Positions 21,461 through 61,550 of a DNA stretch of 64,000 bases are shown piece by piece (position 1 is the stretch's first letter; each line of letters starts with the position of its first letter). The stretch comes from Tricholomella constricta (Eukaryota > Basidiomycota > Agaricomycetes > Agaricales > Lyophyllaceae), in assembly GCA_013368375.1 (NCBI GenBank), contig JAACJP010000006.1, forward strand, positions 806,001 through 870,000, in the 5' to 3' direction. The translations under genes and the position numbers were made by a program. Under the pieces are notes generated by a model that worked only from the letters and a program-made list of their open reading frames with translations, was not told where the DNA came from and did not search any database.

Positions 21461-21952
21461 TGATAGAGCTAGAAGGCCTGTAGGTAAGTGCACAACAACA
21501 AAACAACTAACGACTAAAAGGGGGCGAGAAGTGTGAAAGTTCCCAAACACGTGAGTGTGCAGGGGTTGAAGAGGGTTGGTTTAAGAAACTAAAGTATGAT
21601 TTGACCTGCAGGTGGTGGAACCGACTGGGTTATAATGAACATGACAACACATGATTGGTTGTGACTAGGGTCGGTTGGCGATGCAACTGGTGTGTTGGTT
21701 GTGTTACAACGAGATGGACGAGACTGACGAGGAGAACTCACAGGTTCTGATAACAAATATTGGCTGAGCAATGGTGACTAATACGAGTTTTACGATGGAT
21801 TACGACGTTTGCAATGAGTTTTACGATCAGAATGACTCCGAGGCGACAAGGAACGAAGGTTTGTGAGCTGTTAACTCTGAGTTGAGGGATAATACAGGCC
21901 GTAATTCGCTGGGGGTCGTATGTATTACATAGGGTGCCTTTTATACTTTACA
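21461..21952. repeat. decayed LTR fragment of the 13-kb Gypsy element's family
   Basis: Starts TGATAGAGCTAGAAGGCCTG exactly as the two full LTRs at 24336 and 36247 do, and can be followed for about 490 bp (for example the stretch before TTCCCAAACACG and the GAGCTGTTAACTCTGAG block). It has many substitutions and small indels, largely transitions, and then stops matching. It is an old, truncated LTR of the same family. Confidence 0.85.
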
Positions 21953-23888: not shown

Positions 23889-24335
23889 ATGGCATGCAAG
23901 TACACCAAAAAACGGAAACAGCAGTCACATGCACAACATAATAGCCTTGTGGTTGCCCGGGAATGCCGTTCTTTATGCCTAGAACATGACAAAACCCTAG
24001 GTCTGCATCTCACAGCTCGCAAGAAAATCCTGCATGAGAAATACAAGGAAACTCAGCTCGCTATGCTCACATGGAAGGCTAAACATGCTATGAAGAGGTT
24101 CTGGAATGAGAGACGGCAAAGGAAGAGGTTGGAAGACATGGTGGTAAGGAAACATAACTTACGGCAGCTGAAGGATAACAATTGGAAGCTGATGATAGAA
24201 AATGAAAGGCAGAAGGTGGAGAGCACAGGCATGGAGGAGGAAATTCAGCGAGTTCTAGCTATCTTCTCGTCAAAAATTAAATTACTCACCAAGGAGAAAC
24301 AAGTTTTCATTCAAAATAGGAACCGGTTGCAACGG
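23889..24335 (+). pseudogene. transposase-like repeat-family gene, 5' part, interrupted by the 13-kb element
   Basis: ATG at 23889 opens MACKYTKKRKQQSHAQH, then a long basic coiled coil (KRFWNERRQRKRLEDMVV, and so on) to NRNRLQR at 24335, where the Gypsy LTR begins. Removing the LTR element and one copy of ACGG joins this frame directly to QCKGLKKMVKVL at 37304, in phase. The protein belongs to a large family repeated in Agaricomycete genomes that I know only as uncharacterised, probably transposon-encoded. See the entry for the 3' part. Confidence 0.7.
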
Positions 24336-25388
24336 TGATAGAGCTAGAAGGCCTGTAGGTGCTGTGCACAACAACAAAACAACTAACAACTATGGGGGGC
24401 GAGAAATGTTAAAAGTTCCCAAACACGCGAGTGTGCAGGGTTTGAAAGTGGTGGTGGGATGAGAGTAAAGACGACCCGACTCGTAATTAGTCGAGCCGAC
24501 GGCGACGCGATAGAATACGATCGTTCCCAGGCGGAACGGGTCGGTAACACGACTTTTGTGTCGGTTGTGCGACAACGAGACGAACGAGACGAATACGAAG
24601 AACTCACGGGTTCGGGCGACGGTTTACGAGACGACAGAGACGACGGTTACGAGGTTTACGACGGTGGCGACGGGTTATACGATGAGAACGATGCGGAGAC
24701 GACAGAGACGACGGTTTTGAGCTATTAACTCTGAGAGTGAGGGAAAATACGGGCTGTAATTCACTGGGGGAGGTAGGTAGTACATGGGTATGTTTTTATA
24801 CTATGTGACCGACTCGCCTCTCGCAGGCCGGCGAGGCAGGTGTTTTACTGGTTTATTGAGACAAGCGTCGCCAAGCTTGGTACCACGCGGCGCTTTTTAG
24901 AGAGTGTGGCGCTCCTTGGCTCGGCAAAGGGGCTTTTGATCGGTTCGAGGCGTCGGGTCGGATGTGTGATTGGTGGCGGCCTTTCGATCGGTAGTGGCTC
25001 TTGGAGGCGGAACTCCGTGGTGCGGCCGGATCCTCTCTGCGAATGGCTGGGCAAGGTGTTTCCTAGGGTAATTTCAAATCGGGTTTGGTTGTCGCCGGGT
25101 TGAGACCTTGGCATACAAACGTGCGCGGTCGCTGACAGGTTATACGGCGTTCCGTGCTCCGTGTACCCAGGGAGAAGAACTGGCGTTTCAAGTTACTCTG
25201 TCTCTTGGTCGGTACGTCGGTCGTTTGGTCGTATTGTCGGTCGGTCTGTTGTATTGTCGGTCGGTCTGTCGTATTGTCGGTCGGTCGGTTTAGCGCTTCG
25301 GTCGTATTCGGGAGTGTTCGTTGTGGCGCAGCGGTTGAGGTCCGTATTATGGGCTGGCTCTGTGTATAGCGCGGGACGGTGCTCATCA
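24336..25388 (-). repeat. 3' LTR of the 13-kb Gypsy element
   Basis: 1,053 bp, TG...CA. Differs from the other LTR at about four sites that I could find (near 24699, 24931, 25152 and 25230). Near 25229-25290 it has three tandem copies of a 20-bp unit built on GTATTGTCGGTCGGTCTGT. On the left it abuts ACGG of the target duplication; on the right the polypurine tract. Confidence 0.95.
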
Positions 25389-25404
25389 TCTCCTCCTTAC
25401 TTGA
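25389..25404 (-). other. polypurine tract at the 3' LTR
   Basis: On the minus strand TCAAGTAAGGAGGAGA lies directly against the TG of the 3' LTR. This is the expected place and composition for the primer of plus-strand DNA synthesis. The same 16-mer occurs at 27074-27089 and 31280-31295. Confidence 0.8.
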
Positions 25405-25408
25405 AATA

Positions 25409-25426
25409 CCGACTGTCCTCAGTCGG
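25409..25426. repeat. hairpin next to the polypurine tract, copy 1
   Basis: CCGACTG-TCCT-CAGTCGG, a 7-bp perfect stem with a 4-nt loop, five bases from the tract. The second copy at 27094-27111 keeps the stem with a G-T pair. Confidence 0.6.
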
Positions 25427-25552
25427 CCCCGTGCCTCGGTCAGGGGGCGTATGTCTTGGAAAGGGGGGACTGGGATAGGAGGACGTGGCGGTGCCGACGC
25501 GCTGGTGACATATATATATCTATCCAGGTTCTCGTTTGGTCCACTCATCGTT

Positions 25553-26855
25553 ATGTCGAGACCTCCTGTCGATCTTCAGCGCACTCTCCGCTTCTTGGAA
25601 CGAGACTGGGACGAATGGCAATCGCTGTCGGCCGACTCGCCTCGCTACGCGCGCACTCGTGTGCTGCAATACTTGTCAAACGGCTTCGAAGTGCTTAGGT
25701 CGCCGGCAGCTAGTCCCTGGCGTTGGATGTGGCGCGACGAGGAAGAGGCATTGTTCAACATCTGGTCTACGATCAAGTCCGACCCCGAATGGTCCGGGCG
25801 GTTCGCGGACCTAGAACCGAGTGTGCGTTCGTTCTCCGGTTATTTGGTCGTTCCTGCAGGGTATTAACGCGCTAGTTGGTAGTCCGACCACCCCGACCGA
25901 GAGTCGGACGCTCGGGAGCGTATCCGCGCCGCCTCTGCTGGAGAAGAGGCAGCGTCTGTTGTGCGGGAGCGTTCGTGCGCTTCCTCTGTTGGAGACGGGG
26001 ACCAAGAAGAGTCTGTCGTCGAGATCTCTGGGGAGTCGGTATTGGCAGCACAGGGGAGGCGACACGGTTTGTGGCTGGAGCGGCTTGAGGAATTTAAGAA
26101 GGAATATCCTGAGCATTACACTCGTAGCGAAGCAGTAAGTCGTCGGTTCTCGTGTAGCCTTGTTTTCCTGCTCATTTGTTGTTTAGTGCGATCGTTGTGT
26201 GAGCTACGCTTTGGACTGCGTTCAGCGTAGCGACATTGATACTTGCGCGGTTTGCGAGATTCAATCCCGACCATGCGAGACGAACGAAGTGGGGTCGTTT
26301 CGGCCAGCTCCGCACCAGTTTGTGTCGTGCTCAGGAGTGGGACACTTTTGTGACGCGTGTATGCCCCCTCCGCTGTTCGACGATGTCCAATCGCCCGATC
26401 TGGCGAGGGCCGCCCAGCGCCTTGTCGTGACTCGTTCTGCGGATTCGGTAGACCGGGGTGCGGGTCTCCTTTATCAGGGTCCGGTGTTTCGCCCTGAGGA
26501 CTTCCTTCGTAACGAAGATTTGCGTGGTCTGGGCTTCACCCAGCCGTTGTCGGTTATTTCGCGGTTCGGTCTTGCCGATGTAGATCGGGCGCTATCAGCG
26601 CGCACCGTTTTCTTGCGTACTTTGGTCCAGGAAATTCAAGTCCTTGAATCGCGCCAAGAGGTCATGCGTTCGTCATCCCGTCAGCTTTACGAGCAGGTCG
26701 TGTCTACGTCGTCGGCCCTTGACTTGCTTCAGGCCCGGCGCGCAGAGTTAGTTGGTGCGTCTGCGATGGGTAATTCGAGGAGTGGGGGCAGCGGCAGTGG
26801 ACGCGGTGTCGGCGGTGGCGTACGCGACGATAGTGGCGAGGGTTCGTCGCCTTGA
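25553..26855 (+). CDS. antisense accessory gene 1 of the Gypsy element, Zn2Cys6-like protein
   Basis: Three exons 25553-25822, 25883-26134, 26187-26855; 1191 nt, 396 aa. Both introns (60 and 52 bp) fall at the same places as in the paralogue at 27251. Domain order: a conserved N-terminal ~90 aa (LERDWDEWQSL, then WRWMWRDEEEALFNIW), a variable linker, WLERLEEFKKEYPEH, then CDRCVSYALDC-x8-CAVCEIQSRPC, which is C-x2-C-x6-C-x8-C-x2-C-x6-C, the spacing of a fungal Zn2Cys6 cluster. A C-terminal helical region (DLRGLGF, DVDRALSARTVFLRTLVQEIQ, QARRAEL) is shared with the paralogue. It lies on the strand opposite gag-pol. Function unknown: DNA binding, and so regulation of the element or of host genes, is inference. 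Confidence 0.8.
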
Positions 26856-27073
26856 CTTCGGGTTTGTCGTGTTTTGCGGTCGGGTTGTGTTCGTTACCGG
26901 TCGCGTATTCCGTATATACCTATTTTGTTGTTCGGGCCCTAAAATTGGGTCGTTCTTTTATAATTCGAACTTTTCGTGTTTTAAGTGGCGCAGGTCGGTT
27001 CGTTGTGTCGGTCGGTTTTGTGGTTGGCGGTGTCGGTTGCTAGTATCGGCTGTCGTTTCATCTGTAGTTCCTG

Positions 27074-27111
27074 TCTCCTCCTTACTTGAAATGCCGGCTG
27101 TCCTCAGTCGG
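27074..27111 (-). repeat. internal copy of polypurine tract plus hairpin
   Basis: The same 16-nt tract (27074-27089 on the minus strand) followed by the hairpin CCGGCTG-TCCT-CAGTCGG (27094-27111) as at 25389-25426. It sits between the two accessory genes, so each gene is preceded by the same block, which suggests a tandem duplication of block plus gene. Confidence 0.75.
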
Positions 27112-27250
27112 CCCGGGGACCGGCCGAAAAAATTCTAGAACTGACGCGTGTGTGGCGTGAGATGGCGGTGGCGGTGCAACAGAATTTGACCTCGCGTCAA
27201 GTTCTCAAGGACCCTCTGTCTTTCTCGGCTCCCTCTTTCTCGCTCCCACC

Positions 27251-29340
27251 ATGTCCGTCGGTATGGCTAGCCTCCCGCCAAACTACGCGCTCGTCCTCGA
27301 GGACCTGCAGGGCGACTGGGACGACTGGCGAGCACTGCCTCCCGATGCGTCGCGTAAGACACGCCTCGCCATCCTCGAAGGTCTGTTAGAGGGAGTTACG
27401 GCGTTACGTGCCCAGGGGGGCGATGAACCGCGTTGGGTGTGGAAAGAGGAGGAGTCTGCGTTGCGGGCCATCTGGGCCGTCATAGGAGAGGATGCTGAAT
27501 GGAAGGTGCCCTTTGGTGGCCTAGAGCCTGAGGTATGTCGTTGTTCAGTTGTTTTGACTGGCCCGTGGGTGGGCTGCTCATCCAGCCTCCCCAGAGTGAG
27601 AACGCGCGCCGTCGTCGCGCACGTCGTGCTCGCCTAGGTGCGGCGGCCAATATACGCGCTTCACAGTCGGTGGCGCCCGAGGACCTGCCAGCGTCGTCGA
27701 CTGTGGCGGCTCTACCAGTCGACCTGCGTCTGCCTACGACCGATGCCAAGGCTACGGTCCCTGTGGGAGCTGGAAGTGCCCTCCCAGCGTCCGCGACGGT
27801 TGACGACGCGCCCCTTCGTCCGGAGTCGGGTGCGCGATCAAGTGGTATCGCTGGCGCGGCTGCGGCTGGTGGAGATACCCATACCGTAGCGGGTGTCGTG
27901 CAGGAAGCTGAAGCGGTGACAGTTATGGCGATGGCGGAGCGGATGGGGCGGGAAGCCCTGGGGCCGATGCGAGCCCCCCTCCTGTCGCGCTCACCTCCGG
28001 CGTCCGACGTCGTTATGCTTGATCTGGCACCCCCCGCGTCGCCCGTCGCTGCTGCTCCTCCAAAGGGGAAGGCTAAAGCTAGGGCCAAGGTGACGAGCGT
28101 GCGCGACCCCGAATATCGCCCAGTGACGCTACCCCATATGTCGGCCGGAGGGGGACGTCCGAAAGCGGGTGCCGCGGGTGAGTTCGCGTTTGTTTCACCC
28201 GTCATTTTTAGTCCGATCGACGGGCTCCCACTGACACCTTCAGTAGGTGGACCACCCGTCGTCCTCATCGACACGGTGCCGGCGCCAGCTAGCCGCAAGC
28301 GGAAGCGCGCTGTCGACGACGAAGGCGAGGGGTCCGCGCCTGAGGTAGTGGCGATGGTCAGCAAGGCAGAGAAGGTGCCTGGGGCGGTCAAGGCGGGGAA
28401 GGCGACTGGTAAGAAGGGGGCCACGGCGGCCAAGAAGCGGGAGCAGACTACGGCAGCGAGGAAGGCCGCCGCCGAGTTTAAGTGGCTGGAGCGACTAGAG
28501 GAGTTCAAAGTCGCCCACCCGAACCACTTCATCCGCGACGAGCCGGTAAGTTGTCGTGTGCTTCGTCGGGTCGGTCGCATTCTGACGAACTTCTAGTGCG
28601 ATCGCTGCGCAGACGCCGCCGTGGATTGTTTCCAGAAGCCTGAGGGCGGGATCTGTGCGCGGTGCAAGATCTTCTCCAAGCGCTGCGAAACGGTGAAATA
28701 CAAGACCGACGTGGAGGTTGGCAAAAAGTCGCGCCCCCGGAGTCGTCGTCGCGTCGCCTCCAAGTCCGTTGTGGAGGACTCAGAGGAGGACGTGGAGGTC
28801 GTGTCGCCCACTGTCGCGTGTCGCCGAGCGCGTGACTTAACGGCGCTCAGTGACGAGGACTTCGGGCCGACTGCAGGTGCTTTTCAGTCCGCCCAGTACG
28901 CCGTCGAGGGTTCGGACATGGGCGCCAGTTTCGTTCACGGTGGACGCGTACCCCGCGGTACCAGCCTTCCTCGTAATCGCGATTTGGATGGCCTGGGATA
29001 CGCGACCGATTTGTCGCGTGTCGCCTCTCTTTCCCTGGGGGACGTCGACCGGGCCTTGTCGTCGCGTAACGCACTACTGCGGTCGCTAATCCAAGAGGCG
29101 CAGCTATGGGAATCGCGTCAGGAGATCGCCCGCTGGGGCCTCATACGGGTGCGTGAGCAATTCGCAGGGACGGCGAACGCGATCTCTGCACTCCGTAGGC
29201 GACGCGCTGAGTTGATGCGAGCGGCTGGCGTCGAGTTCTCGGAGAGCGACAGCGGCGCGGATTCGGAGGAAGAAGCAGTGGAGACGGATGAAGAGGACGA
29301 CGAAGAGGAGGCGGGAGGGGACTTGGAGGTTGGGGAGTAG
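27251..29340 (+). CDS. antisense accessory gene 2 of the Gypsy element, Zn2Cys6-like protein
   Basis: Three exons 27251-27532, 27586-28545, 28597-29340; 1986 nt, 661 aa, open throughout. Paralogue of the gene at 25553: N-terminus GDWDDWRALP and PRWVWKEEESALRAIW, then a much longer Ala/Pro/Lys-rich disordered linker with a likely nuclear signal (SRKRKRAVDD), then KWLERLEEFKVAHPNHF, then CDRCADAAVDC-x8-CARCKIFSKRC, again exact Zn2Cys6 spacing. After a basic tail (KKSRPRSRRR) come DLDGLGY, DVDRALSSRNALLRSLIQEAQ and RRRRAEL, and an acidic Glu/Asp end. It is convergent with pol (stop-to-stop gap 374 bp). Introns on this strand would not be removed from the gag-pol genomic RNA, so they can survive retrotransposition. 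Confidence 0.82.
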
Positions 29341-29714
29341 TTGTAGGTGGGGGTCGGCGTCGTGTCTGGACTCTTCTTGGTGTCGTGTTTGCGTCGTTCC
29401 TCCGCTAGAGGCGTCGCACGTATATATCTCGTGCTGTGGACTTGTCGGTGCCCGTAAATGGGCTTTTCTTTAAAAAAAATGTAATATATGTCGTGTGGTT
29501 CTCCTGCGGAGTCTGGCATTAAGTGTGTGATCTTGGAACTTGAGTGGGGGTTTAAAAGAACGAAAGGAAAGACTGTCGTTCAGGGTGTTTGAACTTCGCG
29601 AACGGTCGGGTCGTGGGACGTTGGGTAGATTTAGGGCGTGAAGAAACCAGAGAGGGATAGATATCGAAATGTTTATTAAAAAAGGGGGTATACGAGTAGC
29701 CGGGAGTCGAGCGG
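29341..29714. other. convergent gap between accessory gene 2 and pol
   Basis: 374 bp. It must hold the 3' UTR of the plus-strand gene; pol transcripts run through it. An A-run (29473-29480) and TAATATATG (around 29483) could be part of a polyadenylation region. No gene seen. Confidence 0.4.
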
Positions 29715-32700
29715 CTAGTTTTGCTCGCCTTCCGATTCGGAGTCGTCGCCTACGACTTCGGGTCGGTCTTCGTCGTCGGTGATTGTTGTTGCTTCCAGTT
29801 CTCTGAGTCGCTTGGTGTCTATGTCCAGAGCGCTGTCGGGTAGGAGGATGTTGTTTCGCGCGAAGTAGGGCGCGAGTCTGAACGCTGCTACAGGCCGGTG
29901 TAAGACGGTGCCGTCCAGTTCGCAGAGGATGTAGGCGCCCCCGCGGTTGCGCGAGATCACGACGAGCGGTCCTAGGTATCTAGATCGCATTTTGCGGTTG
30001 AGCGACTTCTCGATTTTCGTGTTGCGCATCAGGATGAGGTTTCCGCGTTTAAAGTTATAGTCGCGCAAGGTTCTGGCGTGTTTAAGTTCGAAGCGAATCG
30101 CCGCTTGTCGTCGCGCTGCGTATACGTCTGAATGCAGTCGTTCTAGGTCGGTCGCTCGTTTCTGTAGGGCGATCGCGCGACGTGTCAAGAGGTCGGTGGA
30201 GGACAGGATAGAGTCGGGCGGTGGTTGTAGGTACGTGGCTTCGACGATATCGAGTGGTAGAAGGGGTTGGGTTCCTGTCGCGGCATAATAGGGGGAGCAC
30301 CCCATTCGCTTGCGGATCGTGACGCGTTCAGCCCAGAAGACTGAATACGCGGATTGTGACCATTTACTTTCGTTTCCGTCGGCGGCTTTGAAAAGGGATT
30401 GTCGTACGTCGAAATGGGATCGCTCGACGAGCCCGTTGGCTCTAGAGTTATAGCCCGAGATTCGAATATTGTGTATGTGGTATTTCTTTGTGAGGTGTTC
30501 CGCGGCTTTGATGAAGGCTGGACCGTTGTCGGTTACGATTTCGCGCAGTCCGCCCCACCGGCAGATGATGTCTTCATACATCCAATCGCCGAGGGTGCGA
30601 CTGTTTTCCTTTCGGAGCGCGCGCCATTCAGGAAAGTGAATCAAGGAGCAACGACCTTGGACAATGTATTTGAAACCATTCGACGGCGGTAGGTGCATAG
30701 TGTCGATGTACATTTTTGCAAACAGTGGCGCGGGTGTCGCAACGACCGGGGGGATCAGGACCTTGGTCGTTTGCTGGATCTGGCATATGTGACATGTCTG
30801 TACGAACCACACGACGTCGGCCCGAACATTAGGCCACCAGAAGCGTTCGAGCAAGGTTGCGCGTGTCGCGTAGAAGCGCTTATGTCCGAGGTTGTCGTGG
30901 ACGGATCGCAGAATCTCTAATCGTGCATTGGGGCGGGCGACTAGTTTATGTGCGCCTTGGCTATCTCTTCTCCAGAGTCGTGTTCCGTCTAGGAAGAACC
31001 CGGTGGCGTATCGGATGAAGGTGGCGTACTGATCGTCGGACATGCCTTCTGGCCGTTCGAGGTTGGTCAACCATTGTCTAACCGCCTCTATGCGTTGGTC
31101 TTGGGCTTTAGCGGCGTCGGTCCTGGGTACGTCGTCGTATGACATGTCGGTCGAATTCGCATTTGGGTCGGTTATTCCTGTATCGTCGTCGGTACGGATT
31201 CTGGGTTGTCGTGGGGGGTCGGTTGCGAGTTCGTGAGTCGTTGAGTCTGGTGGTACCGTGTCAGTGTATACTGCCACCATCTCCTCCTTACTTGAGATCT
31301 GAGCCATAGCGAAGATCTGACACACATGCAACGGCGACGGCGGTCGTGGCAGCGGTTGAATAATGTGCATGAGTCCTTGCATTCGGTCGACCCAATCTTC
31401 GAAGTCGGCTTCTTCTGTGTCGTAGTTGTCGGCTGGATCGTCGGGTTGTCGTGGGCGCCGGGACAAACCGTCGGGTCCACGGAACGTGCCTTTAACATGG
31501 ACAAGTTCGAAGTGGAACATGAGGACAGATACGATCCACCTGTTTATGGAAGCTGACGGCTGGATGTCGGGGTTGGAGAGCATTCCTTTAATGTAGCGCG
31601 TGTCGACTTCGACGACCAAGTTGCGGACGCCTATAACGTACAGTCGTAAAGCGCCAAGCGCCCGAAATAGGCCGTAAAATTCGAGTTTTGGTTGAGAGAA
31701 CCGTGATTCGCGGTCGTTCAGTGTAATGGAACCGAACCGATTGTATCTGCGTCGTTTCCGATCGACGGGGTCGGCTTGACAGAGGTAGAATCCGACTGCT
31801 ATGTGGGAAGTGTCGACGGCCAGGATGACGGGGTCGTCCGAGGCGTAGTCGATGGGTACGAGGGGTTTCGCTTCTGCGATCGCCTCGACGATGTCACGCT
31901 GTGCTGCGATCTGGTCGGGGCCGAACTCGAAGACTGCGTCCTTGCGGGTTAGTTTTACGAGGTGGTGTGCGCGATGAGCAAAGTTTTTGACGAATATCCT
32001 TAGTACTCCGACCGTTCCTAAAAACGCGCGTAACTCTGATAGGGTGGCGCACGACTTCCAATTACGCAGTAAAGCGAGTCGGTCCACGTCGGGTATGCGG
32101 CCGTCGGGCATGCAGACGTGTCCGAGGACTTTAAATTGTGGTGCGCATAAAATCAGCTTCTTGCCGGAGAAGGTGCCGCCGCAGTACTTCATGCGCTGGA
32201 GGATTCGGTTGACGTTGTTGAAGAACTCCCAGATCGCGAATCGCACATCGGCATTGTCGGGGTGTGTTTTCGGTAATCCTGTGTCCGGGTCGGGGTACCA
32301 AGTTGCTGGTCCCTTTATAGCAGCGTCGTCGATATAAGGCAGTGTATAGTCCGGGATCTCCGGTTGCAGGATGTGAGTGACGTCGTCGTGGAAGATTGGG
32401 ACGGAGTTGGTCCAGCCCATAGGTAAGGTGACTAGGCGTAACGCGCCGAAAGGTGTTTGGAAAGTGGTAAGGTCGCGCGACGATGGTGCGATTAGCCGTT
32501 CGTCGTAGCCGACAAACAGGTCTAACATTGCGCCACAAATGCGGCCGGCGAATTGTTCAGCGACGTGGTCTGGTATCGGAGTGACCCCCGAGTGTCGGAT
32601 AGTTACTCGGTTGAGCGGTTCGAGGCTGTGGACGAGGCGGAACTTGCCATTTTTCTTTAGGGTGCAAAACCAACGGGATCGGTAGCTGGAGTTGGACGGT

Positions 32701-33485
32701 TCGTAAACGCCAGCGGCGAGTTTAGTTTTGATAATGTCGCAAACTTCATCGTAGATGCCAGGCGGTATGGGGATATTTCGTTCGATCCAGGGTGTGTGTG
32801 CGACGACCGGGATATCGATAGGGGGAAAGAAATCCGATCGAAAACTACCGCGTTCGGAATCGTCCCATGCGAAAGCGAGATTCTGCTTACACATGAGGTC
32901 GTGCATAATTGCTCGTTCGGAGGGCGTTAAGAAGTCTGGGTGTTCACGGTCTAAGTCGTCTTTTCGCTCTAGAGTGTAGCGGCCGGTGGGTTGGAAAGGT
33001 GGCGGGTTGGGCAGCAGAGTCGGCATGTCGGCGAGAGGGTCGCCCAATATTTTGCGCTCGATGCGGAAGTGGTCGGGACAACTTGCTATAATCGATCGCA
33101 CTTTTTGCGCTACTGGTTTGTACTTCTTTTTGGTTTGTACGCCTTTGATTTTCACCACGAAGGCGTTGGTGGCGGCGTTGGTCAGGGATTGGGTGTGGCG
33201 TCCACTATGGCGCTCGTTGTTCGGTAAAATAGTGCAGAGGGTCGTTCGTTTTTGAGGGTTAGAGTTGGTATTAACGGATTGGTCGGCGATTGCTGGTGCG
33301 GTTAGTTCGGATGCCGCGACGTAGAGTGAGGCTAGTTGCGCGTCGTAGGTGGCGTCGCTATTAAATTCGGTCGGTAGTTCACAGAAAGAAAGGACAGTCG
33401 GGGTATAGCTTAGTGGGTCGTACTCGAGGAGGAGTGCAAGATCGCCGTGATCTCGACTTATTTCCTCGAGAGTATACGAAAATTT
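29715..33485 (-). CDS. pol: pol of the 13-kb Gypsy element (RT, RNase H, integrase)
   Basis: A long open frame ends at 29715. It is open upstream past the gag stop to at least 33485, in the -1 frame relative to gag, so it is best read as a gag-pol fusion product; the separate start at 33158 is a GTG. Reverse transcriptase: KNGKFRLVHSLEPLNR, LPMGWTNS, then the catalytic YIDD. RNase H: ILAVDTSHIAVGFYL and EVDTRYIKGML. Integrase: zinc-binding HDNLGHKRFYATR ... CHICQI, then catalytic D (MYIDTMH), D (VTDNGPAF) and E (NGLVERSH). A GPY/F-like SRYLGPLVVI follows and the tail is acidic; there is no chromodomain. All catalytic residues are present. Confidence 0.95.
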   Translation of the reverse strand, partial: KFSYTLEEISRDHGDLALLLEYDPLSYTPTVLSFCELPTEFNSDATYDAQLASLYVAASELTAPAIADQSVNTNSNPQKRTTLCTILPNNERHSGRHTQSLTNAATNAFVVKIKGVQTKKKYKPVAQKVRSIIASCPDHFRIERKILGDPLADMPTLLPNPPPFQPTGRYTLERKDDLDREHPDFLTPSERAIMHDLMCKQNLAFAWDDSERGSFRSDFFPPIDIPVVAHTPWIERNIPIPPGIYDEVCDIIKTKLAAGVYEPSNSSYRSRWFCTLKKNGKFRLVHSLEPLNRVTIRHSGVTPIPDHVAEQFAGRICGAMLDLFVGYDERLIAPSSRDLTTFQTPFGALRLVTLPMGWTNSVPIFHDDVTHILQPEIPDYTLPYIDDAAIKGPATWYPDPDTGLPKTHPDNADVRFAIWEFFNNVNRILQRMKYCGGTFSGKKLILCAPQFKVLGHVCMPDGRIPDVDRLALLRNWKSCATLSELRAFLGTVGVLRIFVKNFAHRAHHLVKLTRKDAVFEFGPDQIAAQRDIVEAIAEAKPLVPIDYASDDPVILAVDTSHIAVGFYLCQADPVDRKRRRYNRFGSITLNDRESRFSQPKLEFYGLFRALGALRLYVIGVRNLVVEVDTRYIKGMLSNPDIQPSASINRWIVSVLMFHFELVHVKGTFRGPDGLSRRPRQPDDPADNYDTEEADFEDWVDRMQGLMHIIQPLPRPPSPLHVCQIFAMAQISSKEEMVAVYTDTVPPDSTTHELATDPPRQPRIRTDDDTGITDPNANSTDMSYDDVPRTDAAKAQDQRIEAVRQWLTNLERPEGMSDDQYATFIRYATGFFLDGTRLWRRDSQGAHKLVARPNARLEILRSVHDNLGHKRFYATRATLLERFWWPNVRADVVWFVQTCHICQIQQTTKVLIPPVVATPAPLFAKMYIDTMHLPPSNGFKYIVQGRCSLIHFPEWRALRKENSRTLGDWMYEDIICRWGGLREIVTDNGPAFIKAAEHLTKKYHIHNIRISGYNSRANGLVERSHFDVRQSLFKAADGNESKWSQSAYSVFWAERVTIRKRMGCSPYYAATGTQPLLPLDIVEATYLQPPPDSILSSTDLLTRRAIALQKRATDLERLHSDVYAARRQAAIRFELKHARTLRDYNFKRGNLILMRNTKIEKSLNRKMRSRYLGPLVVISRNRGGAYILCELDGTVLHRPVAAFRLAPYFARNNILLPDSALDIDTKRLRELEATTITDDEDRPEVVGDDSESEGEQN
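31280..31295 (-). other. candidate central polypurine tract inside pol
   Basis: The minus strand reads TCAAGTAAGGAGGAGA, identical over 16 nt to the tract at the 3' LTR (17 nt if the flanking base is counted). It encodes ISSKEEM between the RNase H and integrase zinc-binding parts. Confidence 0.6.
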
Positions 33486-35761
33486 ACGTCGGTCTTGGGG
33501 CGGCGACGTTGTCCGCGCGCGAAGGTCGGTATCGCGATGACCTCTCGAGTGTTCGGGTCGGTGATGGTTATGATCGTATCGTCGGCGGATCTCGTTTTCA
33601 CGTTAGAGCAAGTAAGTACGTCGAACGGGCGGCCGAGGAGTATATCATATGCGGGATTGCGAATGACGTGCATTTGGAGGTAGAGCGTGACCTCTCCTAT
33701 CGTACAAGGTACGTTTCGTGCTAGACCGAGCGACGGGTCGGTTGTTCCATTCGCTGATTGCATCTGCAGCACTATAGTTGGGTCGTATTTGACCCCTAGT
33801 CCATGGCAAACTTCTTCCGACATGGCTATGATCTGGCACCCGCTGTCGACGATGCTTTCTATCTGTTCTCTCGCATCGACCATTATCATGATCGACCTGA
33901 GTGCGTGCGATTCCATTGCGACAATCAGTCGGTCCGGATGCTCGCCAGGTAGTAGTGTCTGGTAATACGTGTCGTAGATGTCGCCGGTGACTAGCGCTCC
34001 GGGCGGTGGCGTCGCGTTGTCGCTGTTGGATTCGCAAGGTAGTGCATCGAGTTCCTCAATGAACGCCGACGTGGGGACTTCTTGGTATACCGTTGTGAGG
34101 TTGCCGGCGACGATACGCTTCGGTGTATTAGCTTCCCTAAACTTTCCGCGAACCTCTGGCGCTACCCCACAGAGTTCTCGAACTGTGACCGGTATGGTGG
34201 CGTCGAGTGCGCGTTCGAATAGAGTCGTTGATTTGGTTGGATCTGTAATGGGCGCTTGTGTGCGATACGCACTGTCGGCTTTCGCCTTCTCCGTGGCGGC
34301 TAAGTTTCGCGTGGTAGGGGGGATGTATCGGTTCTCAGGAATATTAGAGAAAGGGTGTACTGGAGTTTGGTCGTGGGCATTGCCTGTGGCGTCGGTCTTG
34401 GTACTGGGGATCAGAGGTATGTTGGCCGGTGGCGGGGGAGCCTTGGCTTGGCTTTTCGTCGCGTCCGAGACGGGCTGCGACGCGGGCGCTGATTTGTTGA
34501 CTGGTGCGATCCTTGGTTGGTCGGCGTCTTGAACGGTTTCGACCGTGACGGGTCGCTTTTGCGGTGCGCGGCTAATAAGTTCTACGCCGTCGAACACCTC
34601 TTTCCTTGCGCGCAGGGTGTTGAGTTCTCGTTCTAACACGATCATGCGATCCTCGATTTTCAGGTCATGGTTGGTGACGTCGTTAAACTGTAGTATTTCC
34701 AACATCATGCTTTCGGTCGGGTTCGCGTTCGCTGATAGCTGTCCTGTCGTCATTTGGCCGGGGTTGCGTCTGTGCCACTCGTCTAACTTGTCTTTTATGT
34801 ATCGGCCTGGAGTTCCCGCCGGTATGCGCGCGCCGCTTGGTAGGCCTATTTTGTTGTCGTCGGTTCGTCGGCAGCGTCCTTCGGTCGCGTATGTTTGATG
34901 TATGGGACAGTTAGGAATGTAATGTCCTTCACCACCGCAGAAGTGGCAGTTGTCATTAGGTGACTGATTCGGTCGGCCGCCGTCGCCTCCTTGGTCTTGT
35001 CCTAAGCGTTGGATATGTTGTTCCAACAGGTTGATTCTTTCGTAGAGCTCTTCCAACTTGAGGGGCTGTCCCGTGTTAGGCGACTTGGTCGCGCCCGTTA
35101 ACGACCCGCTTGGCGCGATCGTAATTTGTGGGGGCGCGCCCGATGGCGCTTCCTGTCGTTGGCCGGCGTTTGTTCCATGGAGGATATGTTCAGCCGCAGC
35201 GCAAACGGTTTCCGTGGCGTAGGGGTCGTCGGGATGGTGGTTCGGGTTTAGGATCTCGAGCCTGCGATGGATCTTTGACCATAGATCGGACTGGAACGCG
35301 CGACGGAATTGGCGGTCGCGTTCGTTTATCGAAAGTCGGTTTTTGCTGACAAGGAACTGGGTAACAGAAAGGAACTGTCGGTAATATTCCCCGAGGTCAC
35401 TATTCGACTGGATCCCGAGTCGGTGTCGTTCTCTGATCAGGTAGTCGAGGTCGGCCATTGAATACTTTCTTTCTTCGCTTGCGCCTGGGTAAAGCGCCAT
35501 TATCGCTTTTCGCCAGTCGTCGTATGTGGTACCGACTGCGAATTCGTCAAGTTGCTCCCACAGATCCGCGGTATCGATGTCGGTGTATCGCGTAGTGTGC
35601 GTTTTCTTTTCTTGCTCATCTACGACGTTACACTCGATGAAGAGATGATTTAAGTCCGAAAAATATCGGCGCAGTTCACGCGCACGTTCGGGTACGAACG
35701 TCGGCGCCGAGCTTTGTCCGCGTGCGGGCATCGGCTTTATAATGATTGGTGGTTGTGCCAT
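33458..35761 (-). CDS. gag: gag-protease of the 13-kb Gypsy element
   Basis: From the first clear ATG (35761, MAQPPIIIKPMPARG) to TAA at 33458-33460 the protein has 767 aa. The frame is open further upstream to 36280, inside the LTR, so a longer N-terminus (940 aa) is possible. The capsid-like part includes RRYFSDLNHLFIEC and WRKAIMALYPGA. The nucleocapsid knuckle is CHFCGGEGHYIPNC (C-x2-C-x4-H-x4-C). The retropepsin is IESIVDSGCQIIAMS with ILLGRPF further on. Translation of pol probably occurs by -1 slippage just before the stop. Intact. Confidence 0.9.
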   Translation of the reverse strand: MAQPPIIIKPMPARGQSSAPTFVPERARELRRYFSDLNHLFIECNVVDEQEKKTHTTRYTDIDTADLWEQLDEFAVGTTYDDWRKAIMALYPGASEERKYSMADLDYLIRERHRLGIQSNSDLGEYYRQFLSVTQFLVSKNRLSINERDRQFRRAFQSDLWSKIHRRLEILNPNHHPDDPYATETVCAAAEHILHGTNAGQRQEAPSGAPPQITIAPSGSLTGATKSPNTGQPLKLEELYERINLLEQHIQRLGQDQGGDGGRPNQSPNDNCHFCGGEGHYIPNCPIHQTYATEGRCRRTDDNKIGLPSGARIPAGTPGRYIKDKLDEWHRRNPGQMTTGQLSANANPTESMMLEILQFNDVTNHDLKIEDRMIVLERELNTLRARKEVFDGVELISRAPQKRPVTVETVQDADQPRIAPVNKSAPASQPVSDATKSQAKAPPPPANIPLIPSTKTDATGNAHDQTPVHPFSNIPENRYIPPTTRNLAATEKAKADSAYRTQAPITDPTKSTTLFERALDATIPVTVRELCGVAPEVRGKFREANTPKRIVAGNLTTVYQEVPTSAFIEELDALPCESNSDNATPPPGALVTGDIYDTYYQTLLPGEHPDRLIVAMESHALRSIMIMVDAREQIESIVDSGCQIIAMSEEVCHGLGVKYDPTIVLQMQSANGTTDPSLGLARNVPCTIGEVTLYLQMHVIRNPAYDILLGRPFDVLTCSNVKTRSADDTIITITDPNTREVIAIPTFARGQRRRPKTDVNFRILSRK
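33479..33485 (-). promoter_or_regulatory. candidate -1 frameshift heptamer A AAT TTT
   Basis: In the gag frame the minus strand reads GTA AAT TTT CGT, so A-AAT-TTT fits X-XXY-YYZ. It is six codons before the gag stop, and the -1 frame runs open from here into pol. Confidence 0.65.
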
Positions 35762-36225
35762 GATAGATGGTATTGGTTTCGGGATCGGGGACGGGGAGGG
35801 GGAATACGACGGTGAAGAAGAATCTGAGATTTCTGGGGTCGCGGGCGATAGATAGGGGAGTCTAAATTCAACTCCTTGATCGGTGGTAGGAGGTTCCAAC
35901 GCAAAGGGGTCGAAAGCTAGGTCGGGTTGCGCGGTTGGTTCGGGGAGCGGTGTTTGATCGGTCGGGGTAGGCGACGGTAGTGTCGACGAAGGGCTATAGA
36001 AGAGCGGGCTGAGGTTGTTATGGATCGCGCGGTGTGGGGTTACTGAGCGGAAGAACGGGGAGAGCGATTCTGAGTCGGTGTCGACTTGTCCGAGAGCAGC
36101 GCGAATTTCGGCACGGAGGGTTCGGGCTTTAGCTTCTTGTCGGGTTGCGGGCGGAATGGTCGACGAGTCGTAGGTTTTTATGAACAAGAGGAATGAGGTT
36201 GCGTGTTCGGCGGTGGCTTTTAAAC

Positions 36226-36243
36226 CCCTCGCGGTGGGCTCCA
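36226..36243 (-). other. possible primer-binding site
   Basis: Three bases after the 5' LTR on the minus strand comes TGGAGCCCACCGCGAGGG. A site starting TGG matches the CCA end of a tRNA. Which tRNA cannot be told from this window. Confidence 0.5.
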
Positions 36244-36246
36244 GAA

Positions 36247-37299
36247 TGATAGAGCTAGAAGGCCTGTAGGTGCTGTGCACAACAACAAAACAACTAACAA
36301 CTATGGGGGGCGAGAAATGTTAAAAGTTCCCAAACACGCGAGTGTGCAGGGTTTGAAAGTGGTGGTGGGATGAGAGTAAAGACGACCCGACTCGTAATTA
36401 GTCGAGCCGACGGCGACGCGATAGAATACGATCGTTCCCAGGCGGAACGGGTCGGTAACACGACTTTTGTGTCGGTTGTGCGACAACGAGACGAACGAGA
36501 CGAATACGAAGAACTCACGGGTTCGGGCGACGGTTTACGAGACGACAGAGACGACGGTTACGAGGTTTACGACGGTGGCGACGGGTTATACGATGAGAAC
36601 GATGCGGAGATGACAGAGACGACGGTTTTGAGCTATTAACTCTGAGAGTGAGGGAAAATACGGGCTGTAATTCACTGGGGGAGGTAGGTAGTACATGGGT
36701 ATGTTTTTATACTATGTGACCGACTCGCCTCTCGCAGGCCGGCGAGGCAGGTGTTTTACTGGTTTATTGAGACAAGCGTCGCCAAGCTTGGTACCACGCG
36801 GCGCTTTTTAGAGAGTGTGGCGCTCCTTGGCTCGGCAAAGGAGCTTTTGATCGGTTCGAGGCGTCGGGTCGGATGTGTGATTGGTGGCGGCCTTTCGATC
36901 GGTAGTGGCTCTTGGAGGCGGAACTCCGTGGTGCGGCCGGATCCTCTCTGCGAATGGCTGGGCAAGGTGTTTCCTAGGGTAATTTCAAATCGGGTTTGGT
37001 TGTCGCCGGGTTGAGACCTTGGCATACAAACGTGCGCGGTCGCTGACAGGTTATACGGCGTTCTGTGCTCCGTGTACCCAGGGAGAAGAACTGGCGTTTC
37101 AAGTTACTCTGTCTCTTGGTCGGTACGTCGGTCGTTTGGTCTTATTGTCGGTCGGTCTGTTGTATTGTCGGTCGGTCTGTCGTATTGTCGGTCGGTCGGT
37201 TTAGCGCTTCGGTCGTATTCGGGAGTGTTCGTTGTGGCGCAGCGGTTGAGGTCCGTATTATGGGCTGGCTCTGTGTATAGCGCGGGACGGTGCTCATCA
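36247..37299 (-). repeat. 5' LTR of the 13-kb Gypsy element
   Basis: 1,053 bp, TG...CA, about 99.6% identical to the copy at 24336. Its right edge meets ACGG (37300-37303), the second copy of the target duplication. Confidence 0.95.
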
Positions 37300-39978
37300 A
37301 CGGCAATGCAAAGGGTTGAAGAAGATGGTGAAGGTTCTGAAGGATAATGCTCGAAAGGCGGCGGTAAGCCGTAAGGGTTTCTGGATGACCGAGAAGGGTA
37401 TTTATACGGTGCAGGTCTGTGCCATGGCATGCTACCTTGCATCAATCGGGGCCGTGGAGAAGAATATTGGCACTGCAATAACCAGAATTGGCCAGGTGAT
37501 CGGGGTCGAGGTTGACCGCACTATGAGCCAGAGAACGGTCCAGCATGCAGTCCTTGAGTCAGGTGTTGCTGCAGAAATACAATTAGCATACAAAATGGCT
37601 AACACAGACAGTAAGAATATATTTACATGATCTGTAAACTCATTTTTGACGTCTTTGAATTCAGAAATCTCATACAGTTCAGACTCGACGTCTCACCGGC
37701 ACATCGAGTATGAGTCCTGGTCTATAGCCATTAAGGTTGTCAATTATACTCAGCCTGACGCTGAACCATAATGGAAAACACGCTCACTCGGAGTTGGTAC
37801 CTCTGTAAACCACACAAGTAAAACCCAGATTGATGGCCTCCGTAAACGGCTCGAGAAGATAGGAAGGGTCTTCAATGCGAGCCCTCCTGCAAAACATGAG
37901 AATCAGGTGTTCTGTGCTGATGACTTTGTTTACCGCTTGATCGGTACCAGTGGAGACCATGCTGTCGATCAAAAGAAGGGCCATGAGATCCTGTACAAAT
38001 GGAAGGTCGACATCATTCTGCGGCGCCTCAGGAAAGAGGCTATTTTTGCCTTACCTGCTACACAGGTGGTGGCATACCTTCTGCCCTTCGAGATGCGACT
38101 TGTTGAGGAGCTCGGGGGATATTCTGAATGGGAGAAGCTGAGCAACAATGAGAAAGTTGCACTTAATACCAAAGTTGTGTGCAAAATTGGCCTGGAGGTC
38201 TTCAAGTCCCTCTCGAAGACCGATTGCAATAAACTCACCAGATTTATTCGGACCAGCTGCTGCATGCACAAGGACTTGAATACTGTCAAATGGGGTGACA
38301 AGGCAATGCAGGAATTCTGGATCTTATTTCGAAAAATCCCTCCCATTCTCCTCGCCAACAAGGACAACACAGCCATTCTGCAAGGCTGCACTGACCTCGC
38401 AAATCCAACTGTGATCGAGAAGCATGACGTCCAGGCCTCAAAACGTGGTGCAAGCCATGCAACAATGCTGAGAGGAATGATTTGCTGTAATAAGGACAAG
38501 AAGAAGGGGCAGCAGGACACGTACAACTTTTTTATGGAGGTCCATGTCGGTGAATCTGTCCCCTACCCAGACATCAGCAACACATTTTTTTTTTGTTTTT
38601 TTTTTTTAAAATCCCTGTTTATCGACCTCTGGGCGTGGCCCATGTCGGTCCTCACTATCCTAAGTACAAAATAATAAATCGGGGCCCCTTCACCTCCTTT
38701 ATTCCTGCACCTGCTGAGCTTGTGAATGCACACTTTGACGGGCCATGCTCGTCGCCCCCCAAAGGCCCGAAACCCACATATGGTCCCGATCAGCAACACA
38801 TGATATGGCTCCCACAGGGAAGCGTTGGCTGTCATCTTCATTTATCGAAAGGAATTCGTCATGTTTTGGAGTTTGTCCGTGACGGAAAGGATAGACCTAG
38901 GTTGACAAATTTTGAGAAGAATTTCTTGGCTGCACTTGAGGATAAACTGACCTTCGTGGAATTCTGTGTCCTCGCAATGTACTGTGTCTGCGTATCTCAT
39001 CCCTTCATGAAGCACGTTCGCGTTCATGATAATCTCCTTGATCTTGGACCATTTTTTGAGAAGAAGGCCGCGTTCCTCTTGACAGTTGCCACGAAACTGT
39101 CGCTGTGGACTGCTGCTGATGCCTCCCACCAGGACAGCACCCTGGATGGACAAGGCTGGGATACTTGGAGAAAGCAAGTGATAGGAACAGTTTGGTCACA
39201 CACGAAGGAACACCCTGACCTTGATGGCACCATTTCTGCATTCCTCCAGGGAGCGCATGGCGCTTTCACGGAGCGCTTCTCTGACGAGTTCACCAAAGGA
39301 GGGGCAATCAATAATTTGACCGACAAGGAGAGGGCAGAGCTGTTCTTTGCGAGTACAAATGATGTCAATGAGGGAACACTCGGTAGCTGGTGACTAGGAC
39401 AGAGACACTGATTGGTGGAGGCAATCCACAAGTTAAATGCCAGTTTCACCTCCAAGCAGAATGACACGGCTTTTCATCGTGGGAAGTTAGCTAGAGAAGA
39501 TGATGAGCAATATCTACGCACCATGGCGCACAAGAAGGATACATCGAAGTTGCAGAAGCAACTGATAGAGGCCCAGATGCGCACAGATGCTGAGAAAGTC
39601 ACCGAGAACCATCGAGTAGAAGCTAAGCGAGCAGAGAAACACGATAAGCAAGCAGCCGAAATCACAGAGACCGCGAGAAAGGGCCTCATCCTCGACAAAT
39701 TGCCAGTAGATGACCTCTGGAAGGATGAGTTGAACCGCCAGCTGGACTGGCACCAAGATCATGAGGCAAAACTCTTTCCAGGTGTCATCTCGAAGGTGCC
39801 ACTCAAGAGTCACATGAAAACGAACCTAGCTCATGCAGGAGAGCTCAAAAAGGCGGTTGAGCAGTATCATGAGCTTGAAATTGCAACTTCGATGGCGGTG
39901 GAGAGTAGACACAGGCCCGCAAAAAGTTTGAACAAAGATTTGATGTATACTTCTGACTACGAGGATAACATGCTTTAA
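37300..39978 (+). pseudogene. transposase-like repeat-family gene, 3' part, decayed
   Basis: Continues the frame of 23889-24335 after the target duplication: KGFWMTEKGIYTVQVC, an intron about 37612-37663 (GTAAGA..TTCAG), SDSTSHRHIEYES, then an in-frame TAA at about 37769, LGVGTSVNHTSKTQIDGL, IGTSGDHAVDQKKGHE, a T-rich tract at about 38585-38608 that disturbs the frame, LSLWTAADASHQDSTL, TNDVNEGTLGSW, then TGA codons near 39391-39414, and a basic coiled end to TAA at 39976-39978. The family is common as hypothetical proteins in Agaricomycetes and I take it to be transposon-encoded; I know no proven function. At least one stop is a CAA/CAG-like to TAA change and another could be CGA to TGA. Confidence 0.7.
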
Positions 39979-61200: not shown

Positions 61201-61424
61201 CTGGGGATCGTCAGGAGAAGATTCTCTGGTACCATGCCGGGCAAGAACGGTGTCTGCGCCGAGTTAGGGGACCAGGTTTCGTGCTCGGGCATGACTGTTT
61301 TCCCGCGTAATTGGTTGATGCGGGGCAGGCGGAAGGAGAGGGAGTCATCGATAACGGGAGGGTCGTCATAACCAGCGTCGCTGGCGAGTCGTGGTATAGC
61401 GAACGAGCGCGAATCAAAAGACAT
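58218..61424 (-). CDS. extra ORF of the chromovirus, downstream of integrase (1068 aa, unknown)
   Basis: A single uninterrupted frame from MSFDSRSFAIPRLAS to RLKRGRGRGH. The first ~330 aa look folded: FDGHLGRFDYTVSPQMVCRQ, ILCWQWDS, WDEVVDLAVEIQRG, NDDFIGVWINGGREHESLWL, VPCFVVHKL, ERINPFDVVAIRNG. A middle part has WIKLEEVSEGVFVQI. The rest is Pro/Ser/Arg-rich and disordered, with SR/RS runs, an acidic patch (IDDHDDDDDDLEDGE) and a basic end. Similar proteins are frequent in Agaricomycetes as hypothetical proteins; I recall them near retroelements. There is no signal peptide or transmembrane helix, so it is not an envelope protein. Being on the sense strand after pol, it needs a subgenomic RNA, reinitiation or an internal entry site. 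Confidence 0.75.
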   Translation of the reverse strand: MSFDSRSFAIPRLASDAGYDDPPVIDDSLSFRLPRINQLRGKTVMPEHETWSPNSAQTPFLPGMVPENLLLTIPRDRSQRRFDGHLGRFDYTVSPQMVCRQVWRGFILLPQVGFNFRRDLPEHEILCWQWDSTEPAKGRVKREYIARLKKRLESLDKDVATYAKMENTYPNFWASRPSLPLLSEVNALSHLATWDEVVDLAVEIQRGMKDKAAWVAFASRLMRDGWTESIARVRREGIPVANDDFIGVWINGGREHESLWLLSQNVPCFVVHKLDYSEQWSTRISKDCKENWTVGTGVQYLRERINPFDVVAIRNGSRRSLYRAPEVSYSEPKVIAEHREWSSAINQGWTGDSTGIWKFRPSTPRPESPRAELASDEAMSETEAPTALAMPPLDLHDLFEDRVAWIKPPPVRGVQGPGKWIKLEEVSEGVFVQIGSKKQPGTEYSYYDREYRREIFTDYELQTPVGLTTDVRVYGLPAPPGSYAAVGGKRKLSASNWVYLKRDPEPANVGKITEPPHAEALPKRVANPAAARVDPPTPNSSLAKALTMRVASPAPAREEILTADPAPIPPPVPPTATLSAGGVSPRLAAAIEDLVSSVSARRRDEDEESLISLGSETSRAPSPETPTRPSENASPLPMQVDEDNTEKDPAFAMAVDGPPDEVTVVRPPFKLLEPPYLRSAPFALSTPLTLVEEAVRSAARDMPEVEIVRLLGTTTTFRRTLWIAVATPEGAAVLKEAYPLASTPALARMELLRASEEDFVQACTVTPASLATGANQEQASSSGSQRRYPDSSSTEKLRQRSPTPYARGTFSREVKRRERSPTRLSPLRRMHVRGRSLSTRRSPSPPRKVARVRDARSPPRYSREAKGKQRQVTPIPTRAPSPPPTTADKGKQRRQSPPPVPSVIMAPMSLPALDPAQLAQLTSHAVMEVLMRMGYSTAAPQSTASTLTSIPASPLPLPPPSVRPPARSLSARLTSAPPPDHPVAGPSSLPLSQRFTDPPRPLENRLSNPVPLIDRLIDDHDDDDDDLEDGELPQNAPPPLPPYVPPARRVRIGRNERNRLKRGRGRGH

Positions 61425-61550
61425 GTTCGAGGCGGTTAGGGGCGGGTTTTGAGTGTTTTTAAGAGATCCGAGCGTTCAACTTCGAGTGTCGCGTCGCGTT
61501 TGCTCTAGTTTTTCGAGCTTCAACGTCTCGTTGTCAAATGATCGCGAACT

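What the first reader, a model, noticed from the sequence alone, without database searches (positions are those of the whole stretch)
25389..29340. Gypsy element carries two antisense, intron-containing Zn2Cys6 genes
Seen: inside the LTR element and opposite to gag-pol there are two paralogous three-exon genes with introns at equivalent places and an exact C-x2-C-x6-C-x8-C-x2-C-x6-C cluster in each. Known: Zn2Cys6 clusters are DNA-binding modules of fungal regulators, and antisense ORFs have been reported in some plant LTR elements. Inference: the element may encode its own regulators. Introns on the antisense strand are not spliced from the genomic RNA, so they can persist through retrotransposition. 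I know no described fungal Gypsy clade with this architecture.
Basis: partly seen in the sequence, partly recalled or inferred. Interest (0 to 1): 0.9.

Follow-up and report, generated by a model that had tools for sequence, protein, structure and literature searches.

The report
Retrotransposon with two antisense spliced genes
A mushroom retrotransposon family carries, on the strand opposite to its replication genes, a pair of related intron-containing genes that selection keeps intact and that are each preceded by the same conserved DNA block, which suggests that the parasite encodes its own nuclear helpers or regulators.

Summary
The window lies, very probably, in the agaric Tricholomella constricta. 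A 12.96-kb Ty3/Gypsy-type element (24336-37299; LTRs 1053 bp, 4 differences; ACGG target duplication; tRNA-Lys primer site) has gag-pol on the minus strand and, between pol and the LTR, two plus-strand three-exon genes (396 and 658 aa). The genome holds 81 close integrase matches, and 133 of 150 scored exon-3 hits have an opposite-strand integrase within 7 kb. No ordinary host homologue was seen. Splice sites, mostly frame-preserving indels and dN/dS of 0.1-0.66 point to selected, spliced coding genes. The Cys spacing fits Zn2Cys6, but the window proteins have no Lys/Arg in the DNA-contact loop and no Pfam match, so self-regulation is plausible, not shown. Antisense accessory genes are known in plant Retand/Grande elements and fungal Boty (brtn); this is an unusually elaborate new variant.

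The parts
24336..25388 (.). LTR next to the antisense genes (the 3' LTR in gag-pol sense), TG...CA
   Evidence: 1053 bp, 4 differences from 36247-37299; LTR query gave 47 matching stretches in the genome, 40 candidates scored
36247..37299 (.). second LTR (the 5' LTR in gag-pol sense)
24332..24335 (.). target-site duplication ACGG, left
   Evidence: sequence
37300..37303 (.). target-site duplication ACGG, right
   Evidence: sequence
36227..36243 (-). primer binding site; its complement equals the 3' end of tRNA-Lys plus CCA
33458..36319 (-). gag and aspartic protease ORF (stop to stop)
   Evidence: zinc knuckle weak, E 0.019-0.06; Asp protease E 4e-6
29715..33602 (-). pol ORF: RNase H and integrase
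   Evidence: RT_RNaseH E 3e-10, Integrase_H2C2 E 1e-15
31280..31295 (+). third exact copy of the polypurine block, inside pol between RNase H and integrase (central-PPT-like)
   Evidence: exact at the same place in 28 of 35 integrase hits checked on C1-C20
25389..25404 (+). polypurine-tract block abutting the LTR, upstream of gene 1
25409..25426 (+). palindrome CCGACTGTCCTCAGTCGG upstream of gene 1
27074..27089 (+). second polypurine block, upstream of gene 2
27094..27111 (+). palindrome upstream of gene 2 (CCGGCTGTCCTCAGTCGG)
25205..25286 (.). 20-bp TCGG-rich tandem repeats in U3
25553..25822 (+). gene 1 exon 1 (four-helix N-terminal domain)
25823..25882 (+). gene 1 intron 1, GTGCGT...TAG; TACTAAC-type branch point in many relatives (TATTAAC here)
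25883..26134 (+). gene 1 exon 2
26135..26186 (+). gene 1 intron 2, GTAAGT...TAG
26187..26855 (+). gene 1 exon 3: Cys6 cluster, linker, segment that aligns with the long helix of gene 2, stop
27251..27532 (+). gene 2 exon 1
27533..27594 (+). gene 2 intron 1 (acceptor 27594; 27585 is also in frame)
27595..28545 (+). gene 2 exon 2, long linker with KRKR
28546..28596 (+). gene 2 intron 2
28597..29340 (+). gene 2 exon 3: Cys6 cluster, RSRRR patch, long helix (coiled coil inferred), acidic tail, stop

Best explanation
A recently mobile Ty3/Gypsy-type LTR retrotransposon lineage of Tricholomella constricta carries a tandemly duplicated antisense accessory cassette between pol and its 3' LTR. SHOWN by sequence: each unit is [polypurine block + palindrome] - three-exon gene; both genes evolve under purifying selection as spliced coding genes of the element; gene 2 is a mosaic, best explained by recombination between elements. 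INFERRED: the two units are transcribed from the 3'-LTR side and from the internal copy of the block, spliced, and yield two dimerising nuclear proteins (N-terminal helical domain, cysteine cluster, coiled coil). Gene 2, whose cluster is the more basic one and most canonical in divergent relatives, would act on element DNA or chromatin (the shared palindrome, perhaps the TCGG-rich U3 repeats) to set the level of sense and antisense transcription. Gene 1, which lacks the cluster in two divergent copies, would act as partner or antagonist. Retrotransposition keeps the introns because they lie antisense to the genomic RNA.
For: Conserved anatomy over many copies. Spliced coding under selection: dN/dS against the window 0.10-0.65 for gene-1 and 0.11-0.66 for gene-2 exons in 13 representative copies, codon positions and frames, introns. 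The block is conserved at gene 2, where a plain PPT role is not needed: 39 of 41 identical between the two units of the window against 52 of 120 in the rest of the upstream DNA; polypurine 16-mer and palindrome both with at most 2 mismatches before 63 of 64 exon-1 rows read, 60 of 61 without repeats; 94 of 100 listed palindromes lie 94-296 bp upstream of an exon-1 hit on the same strand; 109 exact palindromes in the genome against 0 for the reversed control. Cluster spacing, sub-threshold Zn_clus matches of divergent members, 15.4-16.6 bits against a cut-off of 21, and a long helix at residues 147-209 of gene-2 exon 3 resemble the Zn cluster - linker - coiled coil layout of fungal regulators (layout recalled). 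Gene 1 without cluster in L030 and L031.
Against: The window clusters have no Lys/Arg in the Cys2-Cys3 loop, and gene 1's cluster is acidic or neutral. Window proteins have no Zn_clus match. The cluster region was modelled only with low confidence, and from two sequences. No coiled-coil program was run. TCGG enrichment is not confined to the LTR: gag-pol also exceeds its shuffles, 124 against 90.7. The palindrome could act as an RNA hairpin rather than as a protein site. No expression, binding or localisation data exist here.
Confidence: 0.45

Rival explanations
1. The proteins are anti-silencing factors: they bind repeats of their own element and counter host silencing, as VANC proteins of plant VANDAL transposons do (recalled, not looked up). 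Fast divergence and swapping of gene 2 would follow from an arms race.
For: Gene 2 diverges far more than integrase and is a mosaic; U3 carries tandem repeats; several near-identical, recent copies.
Against: The best candidate site, the palindrome, is nearly invariant while gene 2 diverges; genes are under purifying, not positive, selection on average; no silencing data.
Confidence: 0.2
2. The proteins act in the replication or integration complex (nuclear import, chromatin tethering, or binding of the hairpin next to the polypurine tract), not in transcription.
For: One block is the polypurine tract at the LTR, a third exact copy lies in pol, and the palindrome folds as a 7-bp hairpin beside it.
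Against: Proteins made from a separate antisense mRNA would need to join the particle in trans; the palindrome is absent at the pol copy.
Confidence: 0.15
3. The antisense RNAs themselves, not the proteins, matter (double-stranded RNA, interference with gag-pol).
For: Regulatory antisense RNAs of retroelements are discussed in the review PMC7264820 (passages).
Against: Protein-level conservation, mostly frame-preserving indels and introns with free length.
Confidence: 0.07
4. Host genes captured or host genes interrupted by the element.
For: Deposited annotation calls some copies ordinary hypothetical proteins.
Against: The two profile or region searches of a 5.8-billion-protein database that gave hits returned only four T. 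constricta proteins (only the 7990 and 7995 candidates sharing most words were scored; a third search, with gene-1 exon 3, gave none). 133 of 150 exon-3 hits and 124 of 150 exon-1 hits have an opposite-strand integrase downstream within 7 kb; 1 and 0 of the rest a same-strand one.
Confidence: 0.03

Closest known systems
Plant Retand-lineage Gypsy elements with antisense ORFs (Grande gene23, RIRE2, Retand; TRP28 domain)
   Same: [quoted passage not shown] PMC7264820 passages)
   Different: No TRP28 match here; here two paralogous genes per element, introns (the word intron was not found in the held text of those two papers), a Cys6 cluster and a duplicated promoter-like block; fungal host
Boty-like Gypsy elements of Botrytis with antisense gene brtn (Zhao et al. 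2011)
   Same: Fungal Gypsy element with an antisense gene, placed between pol and 3' LTR by the review (PMC7264820 passage; title and mentions in PMC8365987 and PMC4227169)
   Different: Boty gag-pol has a CHROMO domain (PMC4227169 passage), none found here at E up to 1; brtn's sequence and introns could not be compared (paper not held)
HTLV-1 HBZ / APH-2
   Same: Antisense gene of a retroelement whose product is nuclear (PMC11963269 passage; splicing and start in the 3' LTR recalled)
   Different: bZIP (recalled) instead of Cys6 cluster; one gene; no homology seen
Fungal Zn2Cys6 regulators (Gal4/Ppr1 type)
   Same: Cys spacing; cluster - linker - helix order; Ppr1 1pyi is a weak, non-significant profile hit on the cluster (E 1.5)
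   Different: No basic loop between Cys2 and Cys3 in the window proteins; below Pfam cut-off; extra N-terminal four-helix domain

Membership tests
Ty3/Gypsy LTR retrotransposon | LTR pair, target duplication, tRNA primer site, polypurine tract | tested here: met
Ty3/Gypsy LTR retrotransposon | integrase downstream of RT/RNase H, protease upstream | tested here: met
   protease in the upstream ORF, RNase H then integrase H2C2; rve only E 0.17 and no separate RT model listed at E up to 1
Chromovirus | chromodomain at integrase C-terminus | tested here: not met
   none at E up to 1
Fungal Zn2Cys6 (PF00172) | C-x2-C-x6-C-x5..12-C-x2-C-x6..8-C spacing (range recalled) | tested here: met
Fungal Zn2Cys6 (PF00172) | curated Pfam score | tested here: not met
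   window genes no match; divergent members 15.4-16.6 bits, cut-off 21
Fungal Zn2Cys6 (PF00172) | basic residues between Cys2 and Cys3 | tested here: not met
   0 Lys/Arg in 27 of 29 distinct complete clusters of the copies read, 2 and 1 in L030 and L031; P0004 has RKQKVA
Fungal Zn2Cys6 (PF00172) | two zinc ions bound; DNA binding | not testable with these tools
   needs purified protein
Plant Retand-type antisense accessory gene | antisense, between pol and 3' LTR, conserved in most copies | tested here: met
Plant Retand-type antisense accessory gene | TRP28 domain (PF04195) | tested here: not met
Boty brtn | homology to BRTN | not tested
   sequence not available here; protein database searches returned no Botrytis protein

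The most novel reading that the evidence does not exclude
A retrotransposon encodes a two-protein control circuit on its antisense strand: a DNA-binding protein (gene 2) and a cluster-poor partner or antagonist (gene 1), both driven from a duplicated polypurine-tract/operator block, with gene-2 versions shuffled between elements by recombination, so that coexisting elements regulate, exclude or help one another much as phages do with repressor and anti-repressor.
Probability: 0.2. Interest if true: 0.88.

Novelty: new variant of a known kind. Interest (0 to 1): 0.62.

Why it matters
According to the review and the Retand paper seen here, antisense accessory genes of Gypsy elements have no known function. 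This lineage offers a tractable case: recent near-identical copies, two paralogues per element, introns that report antisense splicing directly, and a conserved cis block at both genes. It also gives a natural recombination experiment (mosaic gene 2 on similar integrase) and a possible central polypurine tract in a fungal element.

Tried and rejected
Host-gene origin: rejected as the present state. Minus-strand (env-like) ORF over gene-2 exon 2: rejected, broken in 6 of 8 other copies tested. Positive selection as the cause of gene-2 divergence: not supported, because synonymous divergence is raised too and in some copies changes abruptly between exons. Co-evolution of the palindrome with gene-2 type: not seen, the palindrome is near-invariant. 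TCGG clustering as proof of binding sites: inconclusive. Structure of the cluster: low confidence. Fold searches with the four-helix domain: no match at E <= 0.001 in PDB or BFVD. Two pol relatives at 48-49% identity (L032, L033): no homologue of the antisense genes in the 5 kb read beside each; other retroelements lie there, so inconclusive; two more stretches near the second (L034, L035) were fetched but not analysed. NCBIfam gave nothing meaningful. Relatives in other fungi could not be searched as genomes: the window genome is held without relatives, and the viral, prokaryote, phage and plasmid collections were not tried.
Full report
WHERE. The window is contig C6:806001-870000 of a 44.1-Mb assembly. 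A profile of the antisense proteins finds only four database proteins, all from Tricholomella constricta (Lyophyllaceae, Agaricales), on contigs whose lengths equal those of C7, C9 and C61 of this genome, so the genome is very probably that species. Only the 7990 candidates sharing most words were scored in that search, so distant relatives elsewhere are not excluded.

THE ELEMENT. Two 1053-bp LTRs (24336-25388 and 36247-37299, 4 differences) begin TG, end CA and are flanked by ACGG. On the minus strand follow a tRNA-Lys primer site (36227-36243), a gag-protease ORF and a pol ORF with RNase H and integrase. No chromodomain was found at E up to 1. A search with 521 residues of pol finds 83 places in the genome: 81 at 85-100% identity and two at 48-49% (some are fragments, and two pieces may belong to one copy). 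The LTR query gives 47 matching stretches (40 candidates scored), several as pairs about 12 kb apart around antisense genes (C9, C42, C34, C3, C21).

THE ANTISENSE GENES. Between pol and the 3' LTR, on the plus strand, lie gene 1 (396 aa) and gene 2 (658 aa), each with three exons and two phase-0 GT-AG introns. The deposited annotation of a divergent relative (P0001) uses the same two introns in L030. In 27 other copies plus the window the introns persist (27 of 28 and 28 of 28 for gene 1; 20 of 20 and 20 of 20 for gene 2 in the close set); intron lengths drift by a few bases, while exon lengths mostly change by multiples of three. Several rows are near-identical copies and not independent. 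Against the window, dN/dS is 0.10-0.65 for gene-1 exons and 0.11-0.66 for gene-2 exons in 13 representative copies, the highest values resting on few changes (L005, L012), and 0.03-0.08 for integrase in six. Summed over copies all exons show third-position excess. These are selected, spliced coding genes by sequence criteria. Copies with frame shifts or stops exist (the observation check), and such exons were dropped.

THEY BELONG TO THE ELEMENT. Of 150 scored exon-3 hits, 133 have an integrase hit on the opposite strand within 7 kb downstream, and one of the other 17 a same-strand one; for exon 1 the figures are 124 of 150 and 0 (both lists are capped, and each mixes gene-1 and gene-2 places). 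Some of the rest have the palindrome upstream (C30:550758, C15:7355, C9:1065840) or lie at contig ends (C12, C57); the others were not looked at one by one.

A CIS BLOCK AT BOTH GENES. A 41-nt block, the polypurine-tract sequence followed by CCGACTGTCCTCAGTCGG, stands before each gene. Between the two units of the window it is 39 of 41 identical, the remaining upstream DNA 52 of 120. Of 64 exon-1 rows read, 63 have both the polypurine 16-mer and the palindrome with at most two mismatches within 330 bp upstream (47 have the 16-mer exactly); three rows repeat the same copies, so 60 of 61 distinct. The exception is gene 1 of L010b. The most divergent copies, L030 and L031, keep it. The genome has 186 exact 16-mers and 109 exact palindromes, with 0 for the reversed controls; of the 100 listed palindromes 94 lie 94-296 bp before an exon-1 hit. 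At gene 1 the block is the polypurine tract next to the LTR; at gene 2 that role is not needed, so a promoter or operator role is the simplest reading. A third exact 16-mer without palindrome lies in pol (31280-31295). It is exact at the same place in 28 of 35 integrase hits on C1-C20 that begin near the query start (two further eligible hits, C3:235763 and C20:263587, were left out of that count, and the first also has the block 3 bases away): a central polypurine tract candidate.

PROTEINS. Exon 1 folds as four helices (mean pLDDT 81.7 from a two-sequence alignment) without a structural relative at E <= 0.001. Exon 3 has the Cys6 cluster, a linker and, in gene 2, a long helix at residues 147-209 (block means of residues 151-210: 74-92), taken here as a coiled coil; the cluster region is low-confidence. 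Spacing is that of Zn2Cys6, but of 29 distinct complete clusters 27 have no Lys/Arg between Cys2 and Cys3; only divergent relatives approach Pfam's cut-off (15.4-16.6 of 21 bits). In L030 and L031 gene 1 shows no cluster in the three-frame translation. So gene 2 is the better candidate for nucleic-acid binding and gene 1 for a partner or antagonist; this is inference.

MOSAIC EVOLUTION. Several copies with 94-98% integrase identity have gene-2 exon 3 at only 40-46% (for example C1:1138214, C20:325006, C41:349033, C28:139027). Four-fold-site differences from the window change abruptly in some copies: L006 integrase 33/150, gene-2 exon 1 20/44, exon 2 23/187, exon 3 48/113 (exon 3 against exon 2, p 8e-9); L013 exon 1 2/48, exon 2 24/193, exon 3 46/111 (p 1.6e-8); L018 gene-1 exon 3 6/121 against gene-2 exon 3 47/111 (p 4e-12); L012 the reverse pattern, exon 2 56/153 against exon 3 25/131 (p 0.0015). 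Of seven copies in which gene-2 exon 3 was tested against gene-1 exon 3, five differ (p below 1e-5) and two do not (L005 p 0.36, L012 p 0.22). In L014 and L017 gene-2 exons 2 and 3 do not differ from each other (p 0.52, 0.90). The p values treat sites as independent and are uncorrected. Recombination between elements, not faster amino-acid change alone, explains this best.

PRECEDENTS. Plant Retand elements carry antisense ORFs between pol and 3' LTR, 97% of clusters with the TRP28 domain, proposed regulators (PMC11963269, abstract and passages). A review lists Grande, RIRE2, Retand, PvRetro13 and also fungal Boty (PMC7264820, passages). The Boty gene brtn is cited in PMC8365987 and PMC4227169 (passages); the original was not held. 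Term searches in PMC3248453 and PMC3411680 found no 'antisense'. My ten paper searches showed no report of intron-containing paired antisense genes or of a Cys6 cluster in such an element; they list only some of the matching papers and cover only open-licence ones.

VERDICT. The architecture is real, selected and element-borne. The regulator idea is plausible and testable, with the cluster's missing basic loop as the main weakness. New variant of a known kind.

Noticed in passing
31280-31295: Exact third copy of the polypurine-tract 16-mer inside pol between RNase H and integrase, a central-PPT-like position; exact at the same place in 28 of 35 integrase hits checked.
   Followed up: partly
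36227-36243: Primer binding site complementary to tRNA-Lys; the host tRNA-Lys genes found (two each in L036 and L037) carry introns and sit as convergent pairs.
   Followed up: partly
21461-21594: Sequence related to the start of the LTR (25 identical bases, then 107 at 76%), about 2.9 kb left of the element: remnant of an older related insertion.
   Followed up: no
L033:2747-4549 and L032:364-3287: Next to the two 48-49% pol relatives lie other retroelements: an ORF that looks by eye like a DIRS-type reverse transcriptase, and a second gag-pol on the other strand.
   Followed up: no
25205-25286 and 37127-37197: 20-bp TCGG-rich tandem repeats in U3, visible in most of the U3 stretches read.
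   Followed up: partly
58218-61475 (-): A 1085-residue open frame without any Pfam match at E up to 1.
   Followed up: no
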